In this document: piece by piece, positions 967-21,810 of the stretch
Layout of the letters: each line of letters starts with the position of its first letter
Position numbering within the stretch: the first letter of the stretch is position 1
NCBI GenBank assembly: GCA_003249935.1
Contig: QKHT01000319.1
Location: 1-36,488, forward strand
Reading direction: 5' to 3'
DNA: 36,488 nt
DNA from: Bacteroidota bacterium
GTDB lineage: Bacteria; Bacteroidota; Bacteroidia; Bacteroidales; UBA5342
Notes under the pieces: model-generated
Seen by the model: the letters and a program-made list of their open reading frames with translations, nothing else
Told to the model about the DNA's origin: nothing
Database searches by the model: none
Position numbers and translations under genes: made by a program

Positions 967-1245
967 TTATTTGTGATAGTCAATTATTTCAACTTCATGA
1001 CTTTGATTGTTTTCCCATCGAAAAATTATTCTCCATTGATCGTTAATCCTAATACTATAGAAATTACTTCCTTGAAGTTTTTCCAATCTATTCGATGGTG
1101 GTATTCTCAAATCGTCAATACTTTGGGAGTTATTCAGCATTCTGAGTTTCCTCCTTCCCATGTTTTGTATTTCAATAGGCAATTTCCGAATTTGCTCGCC
1201 TTTCCATATTTTCTCAGTTTCTTTAGAACCAAAGGATGAAATCAT
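967..1245 (-). CDS. higB: HigB-family toxin (RelE/ParE fold)
   Basis: A 92-residue type II toxin of the HigB/GraT group. Family members are ribosome-dependent mRNA endonucleases with the RelE fold. Visible family features are the N-terminal SFGSKETEKIW, the central LEKLQGSNFYSIRINDQWRIIF and the terminal HEVEIIDYHK. The ATG at 1245 is chosen because a promoter -7 element lies at 1270-1277, so an in-frame TTG at 1272 would be inside the promoter. It is first in a two-gene operon with higA. Family assignment is firm; activity is inferred. Confidence 0.92.
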   Translation of the reverse strand: MISSFGSKETEKIWKGEQIRKLPIEIQNMGRRKLRMLNNSQSIDDLRIPPSNRLEKLQGSNFYSIRINDQWRIIFRWENNQSHEVEIIDYHK

Positions 1246-17391: not shown

Positions 17392-18609
17392 ATGAACCAG
17401 TTTGTAGCTAAAAATTTTAAAGGCGACATTGTAATATGGGGTATCGTGCTTGTACTTACCCTTATCTCAATGCTTTCGGTGTATAGTTCGGCCGGTTCAT
17501 TGTCGTGGGCTTCGGGAACCGATAACCCGTTTGCACCTATTGCCAAACATATTACGCTTTTGGGTGTTGGAATTACAATGATGTGGGTGTTCCATAAAAT
17601 TCATTATAAACATTATTTCAAATTAGCAAAATATGGGGCAATAATTATTGTTCCTGTATTGTTGTATGCCACATTACGGCATACACGATGGGTTTTTGGC
17701 ATCCAACCATCTGAAGTGATGAAGTATATAACAATTATATACATCGCTCATATTTTACATCAGTTTAACAACAAGGAAATTAGTGTTGCAGATACCATCC
17801 TTCGTATACTTATTCCGGTAGGGGTTGTGGTTTTGGTAATCTTTCCCGAAAATCTTTCGATGGCTCTCCTTATATGCTTTAACACCCTGCTTCTGCTTTT
17901 TGTAGGACGGTTTCCTGCAAGAGGCTGGATTGCGATAATTATTATAATTGCCGGCATTCTTGTTTTAGGGTTTTTAGCATACAAAGCTTTTCCCGATTTT
18001 AAATTCTTCCACCGTATCAGCGTTTGGCAAGAGCGCATCAACGGCACCGAATCTTATCAAAAAGATTTGTCGATCAAAGCCATTGCCAACGGTATACTGC
18101 CGCAAGGCCCGGGTCGAAGTGAGTTAAAGTACTTTTTGCCACAGGCCAATTGCGACTTTATCTATGCCATAATTGTAGAAGAGGGAAGTATTGTACTTGG
18201 CGCGTTTATCATTTTTTGTTATTTGGTGCTATTTTTCAGAGCCGGACTTATTTCTCAAAAGTCTGATGAGATATTTCCGGGACTTCTGGCCATTGGAATT
18301 GTGGGCGGTATGGTCATTCAGTCGTTTCTGCACATGTTTGTGGCCATTGGTTTGGGGCCGGTTACGGGGCAAACTTTGCCGTTTGTAAGTATGGGCGGAA
18401 CCTCACTGATTATTACCGGTTCGGCCATTGGTATGGTGTTGAGTACGAGCTATTTTTCTACAAAGCCTACTGCGGTTCATGTAGAAACCGAACCATCTGT
18501 AATTGGTGATGGGGTAAGCAAACAGGTTGTGTTTACAGAACACGACGATTTTTATAATAATACCGATAGTGATGAACTAATGAAACACGATATCGATGAT
18601 TTGGATTGA
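17392..18609 (+). CDS. ftsW: FtsW, septal peptidoglycan polymerase (SEDS)
   Basis: A 405-residue SEDS-family polytopic membrane protein that polymerises lipid II at the septum with FtsI. About ten membrane helices are visible. Family blocks are SVYSSAGSLSW near residue 26, HTRWVFGIQPSEVMKYITI (about 95-113), GILPQGPGRSELKYFLPQANCDFIYAIIVEEG (about 225-258, the catalytic loop region) and GPVTGQTLPFVSMGGTSLI near 325. The hydrophilic C-terminal tail (about residues 355-405) is acidic. Its end overlaps the start of the murG-murC gene by 14 bases. Confidence 0.96.
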   Translation: MNQFVAKNFKGDIVIWGIVLVLTLISMLSVYSSAGSLSWASGTDNPFAPIAKHITLLGVGITMMWVFHKIHYKHYFKLAKYGAIIIVPVLLYATLRHTRWVFGIQPSEVMKYITIIYIAHILHQFNNKEISVADTILRILIPVGVVVLVIFPENLSMALLICFNTLLLLFVGRFPARGWIAIIIIIAGILVLGFLAYKAFPDFKFFHRISVWQERINGTESYQKDLSIKAIANGILPQGPGRSELKYFLPQANCDFIYAIIVEEGSIVLGAFIIFCYLVLFFRAGLISQKSDEIFPGLLAIGIVGGMVIQSFLHMFVAIGLGPVTGQTLPFVSMGGTSLIITGSAIGMVLSTSYFSTKPTAVHVETEPSVIGDGVSKQVVFTEHDDFYNNTDSDELMKHDIDDLD

Positions 18610-21085
18610 AGATAAAATACGGATTATAGTAAGTGGTGGCGGAACCGGAGGTCATATCTTTCCGGCTATTTCTATTGCCAACGAACTTAAAAACAGAGAA
18701 CCCAATGTGGAAATCCTGTTTGTAGGTGCGTTGGGACGTATGGAGATGGAAAGGGTTCCGGCTGCTGGGTATCGCATCGAAGGGTTACCGGTACAAGGTC
18801 TGATCCGAAAGTTATCGTTGAAGAATTTTAGCGTGTTGTTCAATCTTATACGCAGTATGATCAAAGCGCGTAAAATGATCAGGACTTTTAAACCTCATGT
18901 AGTGGTGGGTGTTGGTGGTTATGCCAGTGGTCCAATCTGTAAGGCGGCTTCTAAAGCAGGTATCCCGGTGGTTTTGCAGGAGCAGAATTCGTATGCGGGG
19001 GTTACCAACAAGTTGCTTGCTAAAGTGGCCGATGCCGTTTGTGTGGCTTACCCCGATATGGGCCGGTTTTTCCCAAAAGAAAAAATTGTACTCACTGGCA
19101 ATCCGATTCGTCAGGATTTGCTAAAGCCTGTTACACGCGAAGAAAGTGCGGCTTATTTTGGACTCGACCCGAATAAAAAAACGGTGCTTGTGGTTGGTGG
19201 CAGTTTAGGGGCGCGTACTATAAACAGTTGTATTCTCAATGGGTTGGATGAAATATCAGGTAGCGGTGTTCAGTTTATATGGCAAACCGGTCGGCTTTAT
19301 GCCGAAGAAGTGGCCAGGGCGATGGATGGGAAGCAAATTCCCGGATTGGTGGTAAAAACTTTTTTAGACAGAATGGATTTGGCATATGGTGCTGCCGATT
19401 TGGTGGTTTCGAGGGCCGGAGCGGGTACGATTTCGGAGTTGACTCTGCTTGGTAAAGCCATGTTGCTGGTGCCATCACCTAATGTGGCCGAAGACCATCA
19501 GACTAAAAACGCCAAAGCACTTGTAAAAGTGAATGCTGCGGCCTTGGTGCCCGATGCTGGTGCATCGGTTTTGTTGCTAAAAACAGTGTTTAACTTAGTT
19601 AAGGATAGTGCTAAACTTACTCATTTAGCCGAAAATGCACTCAAGATGGCACTACCGGGTTCAGCCGAAAAAATTGCCGATAAAGTGTTTGGTGCAGCGG
19701 CCCGATATATGTTAAAGGGATACTCAAATATTTTCTTTTTGGGGGTTGGTGGTATTGGCATGAGTGCCCTTGCCCGTTATTTTGCTGTAAATGGCAAAAA
19801 TGTAGGGGGGTACGACCGGTCGGAAACCGAGCTTACCAAAGCCCTGAATCGCGAAGGTATTCAAACCGTTTTTGCTGACGATATTAAAAAGATTCCGGCC
19901 TGTTTTGTCAATGCATCCAATACTTTGGTGGTGGTAACGCCCGCAATTCCTGCCAACTCGGCCATGTTGCAGTGGTTCAGACAAAAAGAGTTTAAAATGC
20001 TTAAGCGGGCTCAGATTCTTGGGTTTATTACCCAGGAAAACAATGGTATTTGTGTGGCCGGAACACATGGTAAAACAACGGTTTCGACCATGACAGCACA
20101 TATTTTAACCGAATCGGGACATGGCTGCAACGCTTTTCTGGGCGGAATTTCGCGCAATTACAATACGAATTGTATTATTGATGCTAACAGTAATCTTGTG
20201 GTTATTGAAGCCGATGAATTCGATCGTTCGTTTCATAACCTTATGCCGGGCACAGCTGTAATTACCTCGGTGGATGCCGATCATCTCGATATTTATGGCA
20301 CTTACGCGGAAGTTGTTAAGAGTTTTGAGCATTTTTGTACCTTGATTAAGCCGGGTGGTGCACTCGTGTTGAAAAAGGGTGTAAATATTGCGCCTGTGCT
20401 GAACCGCGATGTGAAATTTTACAGCTATTCGGTAACGGAGGCGGCTGATTTTTATGCCAACGATTTTATGCTCGAAGATGGATTGTATCGTTTTACTTTC
20501 AATTATCCCGGAGGCAAAGTGACTGGCGTGAAGCTTGGTGTTCCTGGTAAACTCAATGTGGAAAATGCTGTTGCAGCACTTTCGCAAGCATGGCTCAATG
20601 GGGCCGATATTTCGAAAGCCTGTAAGGCCTTGGCCGGTTTTAAAGGGATAAAACGGCGTTTTGAAGTATATCTGGCCACACCGGATTTTCTTTTGGTCGA
20701 CGATTATGCGCATCATCCCGAAGAGCTTGCGGCAACAATTAGTTCGGCAAGGCAACTGTACCCCGACCGAAGGATTACAGGTGTTTTTCAACCCCATTTG
20801 TATAGCCGAACACGCGATTTGGCCGATGGGTTTGCGCGCAGTCTTTCGATGCTCGACGAAGTGGTTTTGCTCGATATATATCCGGCTCGCGAATTGCCCA
20901 TAGAGGGCGTAAGTTCGCAAATGGTATTTGAACAGATTACATCGGCAAAAAAAACATTATGCACCAAAAACGAATTACTCGCGGTACTCAGAAAAATTGA
21001 AAAACCGGGGGTGTTGCTTGTAATGGGTGCAGGTGATATAGATACCATGTTAAACGATATAAAAATAGTATTCGAAAACAGATGA
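18596..21085 (+). CDS. murG-murC: MurG-MurC fusion protein
   Basis: A single uninterrupted 829-codon gene. Residues 1 to about 370 are MurG, which adds GlcNAc to lipid I: GGGTGGHIFPAIS (14-26), VVGVGGYASGP, QEQNSYAGVTNK, VSRAGAGTISEL and NVAEDHQTKNA. Residues from about 372 to 829 are MurC, the UDP-MurNAc:L-Ala ligase: NIFFLGVGGIGMSALARYF, GTHGKTT (489-495), IEADEFDRSFHNL, DADHLDIYGTY, and DDYAHHP (702-708). Both halves are near full length with all key motifs. The join is AEKIADKVFGAAARY-MLKGYSN, with no linker. Met372 (ATG 19709-19711) could allow internal initiation of MurC. In most bacteria these are separate adjacent genes. ftsQ follows with a 4-base ATGA overlap. A sequencing indel is possible but not favoured, since the MurG reading frame is intact up to the join. 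Confidence 0.93.
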   Translation: MIWIEDKIRIIVSGGGTGGHIFPAISIANELKNREPNVEILFVGALGRMEMERVPAAGYRIEGLPVQGLIRKLSLKNFSVLFNLIRSMIKARKMIRTFKPHVVVGVGGYASGPICKAASKAGIPVVLQEQNSYAGVTNKLLAKVADAVCVAYPDMGRFFPKEKIVLTGNPIRQDLLKPVTREESAAYFGLDPNKKTVLVVGGSLGARTINSCILNGLDEISGSGVQFIWQTGRLYAEEVARAMDGKQIPGLVVKTFLDRMDLAYGAADLVVSRAGAGTISELTLLGKAMLLVPSPNVAEDHQTKNAKALVKVNAAALVPDAGASVLLLKTVFNLVKDSAKLTHLAENALKMALPGSAEKIADKVFGAAARYMLKGYSNIFFLGVGGIGMSALARYFAVNGKNVGGYDRSETELTKALNREGIQTVFADDIKKIPACFVNASNTLVVVTPAIPANSAMLQWFRQKEFKMLKRAQILGFITQENNGICVAGTHGKTTVSTMTAHILTESGHGCNAFLGGISRNYNTNCIIDANSNLVVIEADEFDRSFHNLMPGTAVITSVDADHLDIYGTYAEVVKSFEHFCTLIKPGGALVLKKGVNIAPVLNRDVKFYSYSVTEAADFYANDFMLEDGLYRFTFNYPGGKVTGVKLGVPGKLNVENAVAALSQAWLNGADISKACKALAGFKGIKRRFEVYLATPDFLLVDDYAHHPEELAATISSARQLYPDRRITGVFQPHLYSRTRDLADGFARSLSMLDEVVLLDIYPARELPIEGVSSQMVFEQITSAKKTLCTKNELLAVLRKIEKPGVLLVMGAGDIDTMLNDIKIVFENR

Positions 21086-21810
21086 AACGAATTCTGAGAA
21101 CGATATTGGTGGTAATACTTTCCGGCTATCTGCTTACAATGCTGGCAATATCCATACACTCTTCGGGAAGCCGGGTGTGTAAGGGTTTTGTTGTTAATGT
21201 GGCTGATAGTGCGGATTATAGTTTTGTTAACCGGTCGGATATTCGTAATCTGCTTTCGAATAAGGGAATAAAACTTTCGGGTAAAGCTTTTGGTAATATT
21301 AATACCAACGATGTTGAACTTTTGGTTTTAAAGCATCCTTTTGTAAAGAGTGTAAGTTGTTACAAAGGGTTGGATGGTTATGTTCATATCAGAATAAAGC
21401 AACGAGAGCCAATATTAACCGTATTCTCTGGTGGAAAGCAGTACTTTGTGGATACCGAGGGGAAAGTTATTGCAGGACGAGGCGGCAATGCGCCTAAAAT
21501 TATGGTGGCAACGGGAAATGTAAACAGCAAAACGGGTTTAGACCGATTGATAACCGTGACTAATTTTCTGCGTGATAATCGCAAATGGGAACGGCAAATT
21601 ACGCAATTGGCACTCAATAATCGTAACGAAGTATACATGATTCCGCGTGTAGGTAACTTCAGTATTCTGGTTGGAGATGGATTAAATCTCGAACGTAAAT
21701 TCGATAATCTCAACACTTTTTACGCCCGGGTGGTGGACAAAGGTGGTTCTGGTAAATATTCGGTTGTAAATATTAAGTTTGATAATCAGGTTGTTTGTAT
21801 AAAAAGATAG
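21082..21810 (+). CDS. ftsQ: FtsQ cell division protein
   Basis: A 242-residue bitopic membrane protein with one helix near the N-terminus (about residues 5-25), a POTRA-like domain (about 30-100, ending HPFVKSVSCYKGLDGYVHIRIKQREPI split over two strands) and a beta domain reading YFVDTEGKVI and then YMIPRVGNFSILVGDG. FtsQ recruits FtsL and FtsB-like proteins to the septum. Similarity is weak, as is usual for this family, but topology, size and position between murC and ftsA agree. Its ATG overlaps the murC stop by 4 bases and ftsA starts 4 bases after its stop. Confidence 0.9.
   Translation: MKRILRTILVVILSGYLLTMLAISIHSSGSRVCKGFVVNVADSADYSFVNRSDIRNLLSNKGIKLSGKAFGNINTNDVELLVLKHPFVKSVSCYKGLDGYVHIRIKQREPILTVFSGGKQYFVDTEGKVIAGRGGNAPKIMVATGNVNSKTGLDRLITVTNFLRDNRKWERQITQLALNNRNEVYMIPRVGNFSILVGDGLNLERKFDNLNTFYARVVDKGGSGKYSVVNIKFDNQVVCIKR

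What the first reader, a model, noticed from the sequence alone, without database searches (positions are those of the whole stretch)
18596..21085. MurG and MurC are fused in one 829-codon gene
The two genes are usually adjacent in dcw clusters. Here no stop lies between them, both halves retain their motifs, and the join is direct (IADKVFGAAARY-MLKGYSN). MurC makes the first cytoplasmic peptide addition and MurG the last cytoplasmic sugar transfer, so the fusion could hold precursor synthesis near the membrane rather than channel adjacent steps. Met372 may still start a free MurC. A +1 shift just before 19709 would end MurG at a TAA overlapping the murC ATG (ATGTTAA), so a lost or gained base is the main rival explanation.
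Basis: partly seen in the sequence, partly recalled or inferred. Interest (0 to 1): 0.75.

Follow-up and report, generated by a model that had tools for sequence, protein, structure and literature searches.

The report
Fused MurG–MurC cell-wall enzyme gene
In this bacterium, two cell-wall-building enzymes normally made from neighbouring genes appear to be made as one long protein; related bacteria carry the same join in several separate lineages, so it is probably a real but already described kind of gene fusion.

Summary
In detail: 18596-21085 is one 829-codon frame, MurG then MurC, and no other murG or clear murC was found in the assembly. Both halves pass NCBIfam's cut-offs, and the window keeps the conserved residue at 143 of 143 columns conserved in relatives. 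The same fusion recurs in Bacteroidales: 18 fused rows of 175 in a tree, needing at least 10 changes of state. An assembly error is therefore the weaker reading. Met372, proposed as a free MurC start, has a context in the lowest 1% of starts in this genome, while nine other division-cluster starts look normal. That argues against both a hidden separate murC starting there and internal initiation there. The likeliest origin is loss of a stop abutting murC's ATG; the codon before Met372 is TAT, one base from a stop. AlphaFold2 runs MurG's last helix through the join (pTM 0.91), whereas a fusion from another lineage gets a low-confidence linker (pTM 0.75). MurG/MurC fusions were noted in print in 2016 and 2019, so this is a new member of a known kind. 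Tethering of MurC at the membrane through MurG is inference; no activity was tested.

The parts
18596..21085 (+). fused murG-murC gene, 829 codons plus TGA stop
   Evidence: no other murG in G000 at E<=0.001, and apart from Mur-ligase paralogues no other murC
18596..19708 (+). MurG half, residues 1-371 (GT28 glycosyltransferase)
   Evidence: TIGR01133 308 bits vs cut-off 250; PF03033 and PF04101; VIA-align to 3s2u Z 38.6, rmsd 2.1, 325 aligned
19709..21082 (+). MurC half, residues 372-829 (Mur ligase)
   Evidence: TIGR01082 360 bits vs cut-off 335; PF01225, PF08245, PF02875; VIA-align to 1p3d_B Z 48.2, rmsd 2.0, 446 aligned
19661..19717 (+). predicted continuous helix, residues 356-374, running from MurG across the join; MurC's first strand is residues 378-382
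   Evidence: AlphaFold2 model, mean pLDDT 95.4, pTM 0.91
19706..19708 (+). TAT (Tyr371), codon before Met372; one base from TAA/TAG; inferred former stop position
   Evidence: sequence; abutting in-frame stop|ATG in L031, L111, L113, L114
19709..19711 (+). Met372 ATG, position of the inferred old murC start; poor start context
   Evidence: score -7.8, 1st percentile of starts and 4th of internal ATGs
17392..18609 (+). ftsW, overlapping the murG start by 14 bases
   Evidence: TIGR02614 is the best hit, below its cut-off
21082..21810 (+). ORF at the ftsQ position, overlapping the murC end by 4 bases (ATGA)
   Evidence: no NCBIfam match at E<=1e-10, named by its position between murC and ftsA

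Best explanation
A genuine, established gene fusion: murG and murC of this Bacteroidales genome are read as one polypeptide of about 90 kDa carrying both enzymes. Most likely murG's stop abutted murC's ATG in frame, as in several relatives, and a one-base change turned it into TAT; the start signal at Met372 then decayed because it was no longer needed. Each half should catalyse its own reaction (MurC: L-Ala onto UDP-MurNAc; MurG: GlcNAc onto lipid I). The reactions are not consecutive, so I expect fixed 1:1 supply and co-location rather than handing over of a product: MurG's membrane-binding N-domain would carry MurC to the inner membrane and into MurG-centred assemblies. Shown: ORF, families, conserved residues, recurrence in relatives, poor start context, predicted helical join. 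Inferred: translation as one protein, both activities, stop-loss route, signal decay, membrane tethering.
For: Uninterrupted ORF with both families above cut-off; 0 of 143 conserved columns changed. Same fusion in 17 other places, including 2 of 2 genomes of one genus, at least 11 of 45 genomes of family f92 and three loci forming one supported clade (L047, L056, L096); 10 changes of state on a 175-row tree, all 10 forced by starred branches. Met372 context -7.8 against 2.1 to 6.9 for nine other dcw starts; none of 57 tightly spaced separate relatives as low, 1 of 140 overall. One frame break in 23,906 aligned residues of G000. Model pTM 0.91 with a continuous helix over the join. MurG as a scaffold that binds MurE-MurF: PMC6420597 (abstract and passages).
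Against: No reads, no protein data, and no second genome of the same genus: of 3 genomes held for the family, the other two have murG and murC separate. The join keeps a Met at the usual murC start position, as a recent or artefactual fusion would. The G000 evidence comes from one assembly of 326 contigs. Fused and separate states mix within f92, so the fusion is not needed there and may be neutral. The start-context argument assumes that a separate murC would start at 19709; an in-frame GTG at codon 365 has a middling context (-0.8). The helical join rests on one model, and L121's model differs.
Confidence: 0.82

Rival explanations
1. Assembly or sequencing error: two ordinary genes, joined on paper by a wrong, missing or extra base near the join.
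For: The same-family relative with both genes adjacent (G002) has them separate with a 4-base overlap; a TAA lies in the shifted frame just after the ATG; Met372 sits at the usual murC start position; the assembly does hold at least one frame break, in L229.
Against: Frame breaks about 1 per 72 kb, so roughly 5 in 10,000 for a join of some 36 bases, against at least 4 of 392 other genomes of the order sample with a stop-free fusion. No homopolymer longer than three between 19674 and 19730; runs of five or six lie on either side, where conserved residues fix the frame (I360 and the IGMS motif are conserved columns). The start context at Met372 is below that of nearly all murC starts scored (139 of 140).
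Confidence: 0.12
2. The fused frame is real, but the cell also makes free MurC by internal initiation at Met372 or a nearby codon, giving two products.
For: ATG at the usual start position; GTG codon 365 with a middling context (-0.8).
Against: Met372 context at the 1st percentile of starts; no stop beside it, so no re-initiation by a terminating ribosome (inference).
Confidence: 0.1
3. The fusion is real but neutral: stop loss in a tight in-frame gene pair is easy and tolerated, and gives no gain in flux or location. (This is compatible with the gene-level part of the best explanation.)
For: In-frame neighbouring pairs are common among the fetched relatives (133 of 156 full separate pairs, a sample biased to in-frame pairs); both states occur within one genus.
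Against: Fused state kept through speciation in two supported clades (L147/L148; L047/L056/L096); no conserved column lost in the window, though that would also hold if the fusion were neutral.
Confidence: 0.4

Closest known systems
MurG/MurC fusion of Cellulomonas gilvus (Laddomada 2016, PMC4929429) and as a class in Laddomada 2019 (PMC6420597)
   Same: Same two enzymes joined from adjacent dcw genes; both papers say the reactions are not sequential (passages).
   Different: The named example is an actinomycete ('C. gilvus' in the legend; the genus name is recalled); its sequence and linker were not examined here. The Bacteroidales cases and their repeated appearance are not in the passages read.
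MurE-MurF fusion of Bordetella pertussis (PMC6420597)
   Same: Two Mur enzymes in one chain; interacts with MurG (abstract).
   Different: Two consecutive ligases, elongated and flexible by EM and SAXS in that paper; here a transferase plus a non-consecutive ligase with a predicted helical join.
MurB-MurC fusion of Verrucomicrobium spinosum (PMC4803751) and MurC-Ddl of Chlamydia (in its reference list)
   Same: MurC fused to another precursor enzyme; MurC kinetics of the V. spinosum protein are reported (passages).
   Different: Different partner enzyme.
MurF-alanine racemase fusion, NF008897 (PRK11930)
   Same: Bifunctional Mur enzyme; present in the window's own genome, 972 bits vs cut-off 804.
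   Different: Other enzymes. It is a curated NCBIfam family, whereas no MurG-MurC family is among the 25 families shown (of 30 matched) for the window protein.

Membership tests
MurG (TIGR01133) | score above curated cut-off | tested here: met
   308.1 vs 250.25 bits, residues 6-363
MurG (TIGR01133) | columns conserved in relatives kept (GGTGGH, QEQNS, GGS.GA and others) | tested here: met
   68 of 68 columns
MurC (TIGR01082) | score above curated cut-off | tested here: met
   360.4 vs 335.1 bits, residues 378-818
MurC (TIGR01082) | columns conserved in relatives kept (GTHGKT, EADE.DRSF, DHLDIY, DYAHHP and others) | tested here: met
   75 of 75 columns
MurG/MurC fusion proteins | both enzymes in one uninterrupted frame, MurG first | tested here: met
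MurG/MurC fusion proteins | one polypeptide with both activities in the cell | not testable with these tools
   needs protein work
assembly artefact | separate frames in reads or in another genome of the species | not testable with these tools
   no reads on hand; the family search held 3 genomes in 3 genera, none other of the window's genus
assembly artefact | hidden murC start at 19709 with a normal start context | tested here: not met
   Met372 -7.8; 1st percentile of starts

The most novel reading that the evidence does not exclude
Bacteroidales repeatedly evolved a bifunctional MurG-MurC enzyme because tying the first peptide-adding ligase to the membrane-bound last transferase is useful. 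The window's form is a rigid version in which MurG's last helix runs straight into MurC and fixes the geometry of the two active sites, unlike the flexible linker predicted for another lineage. It would be natural evidence for a MurG-centred cytoplasmic Mur complex.
Probability: 0.25. Interest if true: 0.55.

Novelty: new member of a known kind. Interest (0 to 1): 0.35.

Why it matters
Whether cytoplasmic cell-wall enzymes work as a complex around MurG is an open question, and natural fusions are among its evidence. A pair that fuses repeatedly although the two reactions are not consecutive favours co-location or shared dosage over product hand-over, or else shows how easily tight gene pairs fuse. 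A predicted rigid form offers a single-chain target for structure determination. Fused and separate states within one genus allow matched comparison.

Tried and rejected
Indel rival: 739 kb of G000 (window included) compared with 513 ORFs of G001 gave 1 frameshift-like case in 63 matched places, in L229, and no in-frame stop; the rate is rough because it rests on one event. The comparison the other way gave 0 frameshift-like cases and 3 in-frame stops in G001.

Second copy: searched G000. The 455-aa ligase on C187 scores 229 bits for MurC and 172 for Mpl, both below cut-off; similar distant ligases appear in many of the 60 genomes, whose list was cut, so I do not take it for a replacement MurC, but this was not tested.

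One origin of all fusions: not favoured. At least 10 changes on both trees, of which starred branches force 10 (FastTree) and 9 (IQ-TREE quick). No AU test was run. The window's sister was G002 in the first tree (98, starred); in the second its place among L031, G002 and others was unresolved.

Viral relatives: one stretch matched a pattern, none was confirmed. Phylum sample: of 395 genomes, 24 matched at E<=1e-150 and only the window's own was stop-free; weaker matches were not looked at.

Start-context controls: 1 of 140 separate relatives scored below Met372, L080; that ATG lies 57 bases past murG's stop and its upstream bases read like the GGIG motif, so I judge it a mis-picked internal ATG. 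7 of 140 have as few A's (3 or fewer) upstream. The 140 are those of 156 full separate pairs in which an ATG was found. The matrix included window genes in its training; one search left out the murG start and Met372 and gave -7.76. The count of residues before MurC's first strand (median 16) looked like an alignment slip and was not used.

Classification: 182 loci with both genes, 175 full length, 19 fused, of which L146 repeats L006. Tree rows dropped: L146, L135, L136, L019, L027, L160, L163 (duplicates or partials). Loci are not genomes and rows may repeat (L040 and L117 are identical). Loci fetched by whole-length similarity favour in-frame pairs. Alignment A1 used 58 of 153 usable separate pairs, drawn at random, plus 17 fused rows.

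Structure: no coordinates were on hand, so distances between active sites were not measured.

Literature: searches; two searches listed 30 of 62 and 20 of 237 papers. Of the six papers opened, by passages only (PMC6420597, PMC4803751, PMC4929429, PMC7231273, PMC8657477, PMC8256705), two name the MurG/MurC fusion (PMC4929429, PMC6420597). No listed title or abstract start concerned a Bacteroidales MurG-MurC fusion; papers outside the held library were not seen.

Full report
What is there. The window holds a Bacteroidales-type division and cell-wall (dcw) cluster: an ftsI-like penicillin-binding protein, murE, mraY, murD, ftsW, murG-murC, an ORF at the ftsQ position, ftsA, ftsZ. The order is inferred from the organisms named among the closest loci. 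The 829-codon frame 18596-21085 is uninterrupted. Its halves match MurG (TIGR01133, 308 bits, cut-off 250) and MurC (TIGR01082, 360 bits, cut-off 335), with the expected Pfam domains. At 143 columns that are at least 95% conserved among the other rows of alignment A1 (40 or more letters), the window never departs from the conserved residue. In G000 the MurG half has no other match at E<=0.001; other matches, to the MurC half, are murE, murD, a MurF fusion on C78 and a distant MurC/Mpl-like ligase on C187 that scores below both cut-offs.

Is it an artefact? Three results speak to this. First, recurrence. In a sample of 393 genomes of the order, 57 had a match spanning both genes at E<=1e-175 and 5 of these were stop-free: the window's own, G052, G194, G088 and G189. 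G088 and G189 are the two genomes held of their genus, and both are fused. In the family of G194, at least 11 of 45 genomes are fused (loci of 30 matches were fetched). Three public loci, L047, L056 and L096, are fused. In a phylum sample only the window's own genome was stop-free among 395 at E<=1e-150. Second, assembly quality. Comparing 739 kb of G000 with ORFs of the same-family genome G001 gave one frameshift-like case in 23,906 aligned residues, so an error in a join of some 36 bases has a chance of about 5 in 10,000 by this rough estimate. Third, Met372 lacks a start context. A weight matrix from 342 starts and 3253 internal ATGs of this genome separates the two with AUC 0.88; Met372 scores -7.8, the nine other dcw starts tested 2.1 to 6.9. 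Of 57 tightly spaced separate murC genes in relatives, none scores as low, and 1 of 140 overall, probably a mis-picked ATG. If 19709 were a living murC start hidden by an error, it should look like one. A start at GTG codon 365 (score -0.8) is not excluded.

How it arose. In relatives such as L031, L111, L113 and L114 the murG stop abuts the murC ATG in the same frame. The window's codon before Met372 is TAT, one base from TAA or TAG. A single stop-loss substitution would therefore give this exact join; this is inference. A frame-changing indel from an overlapping arrangement, as in G002 (ATGA), is the alternative. In G001 the two genes lie on different contigs, murC beside ORFs that look like ftsQ and ftsA by eye.

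How often it arose. On a 175-row FastTree tree of MurG plus MurC, 18 fused rows need at least 10 changes of state, all forced by starred branches; shuffled labels need 17.4 on average. IQ-TREE on 55 rows gave 10 changes, 9 forced. Changes include losses as well as gains, so the number of origins is not fixed. On the first tree the window, G052, the G088/G189 pair, the trio L047/L056/L096 and family f92 lie in separate places; on the second, G052 and G088/G189 come near each other with separate-gene rows between them.

How it probably works. AlphaFold2 gives mean pLDDT 95.4 and pTM 0.91, and runs MurG's last helix, residues 356-374, across the join to MurC's first strand at 378. The halves match MurG (3s2u, Z 38.6, rmsd 2.1, 325 aligned) and MurC (1p3d_B, Z 48.2, rmsd 2.0, 446 aligned) structures. 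The f92 fusion L121 modelled in the same way has a low-confidence stretch at 376-381 and pTM 0.75, so joins may differ between lineages. The relative placing of the halves comes from one model each, with 18 fused rows in each alignment, and I had no coordinates to measure. MurG attaches to the membrane through an N-terminal hydrophobic patch (PMC8256705, passage) and has been proposed as a scaffold for Mur enzymes (PMC6420597, abstract and passages). Fusing MurC to it would hold MurC at that site in 1:1 ratio. Product hand-over is unlikely because other steps lie between the two reactions (established pathway).

What is known. The 2016 review states that fusions between murG and murC were found, and its figure legend names C. 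gilvus (PMC4929429, passages); the 2019 paper repeats this and comments that the steps are not subsequent. So the kind is known. What I did not find described, within the searches made, is its repeated appearance in Bacteroidales and the predicted helical join. The window's genome also holds a MurF-alanine racemase fusion of a curated family.

Verdict. A real fusion, with confidence about 0.82 in the gene-level explanation and less in the tethering mechanism; a new member of a known kind; moderate interest.

Noticed in passing
L221:16423-18888 (-), G000 contig C78: 821-aa MurF-alanine racemase fusion in the same genome (NF008897, 972 bits vs cut-off 804).
   Followed up: yes
L222:3187-4554 (+), G000 contig C187: 455-aa Mur ligase scoring below the cut-offs of both MurC and Mpl; similar distant matches occur in many relatives.
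   Followed up: partly
L229 near 1083-1101 (-), G000 contig C67: Frameshift-like break: a 955-aa ORF of G001 matches here in two frames; assembly error or pseudogene not decided.
   Followed up: no
L159:769-3372 (-): The linker of this fused MurG-MurC holds repeated TLHSS-type motifs, as if a short repeat expanded in frame between the genes.
   Followed up: no
L143 and L144 (G001 contigs C7 and C112): Same-family genome with murG and murC apart, murC still beside ftsQ-like and ftsA-like ORFs; its murG carries a run of N in the assembly.
   Followed up: partly
loci L121, L149-L177 (family f92): Fused and separate murG/murC occur within one genus, useful for gain and loss studies.
   Followed up: partly
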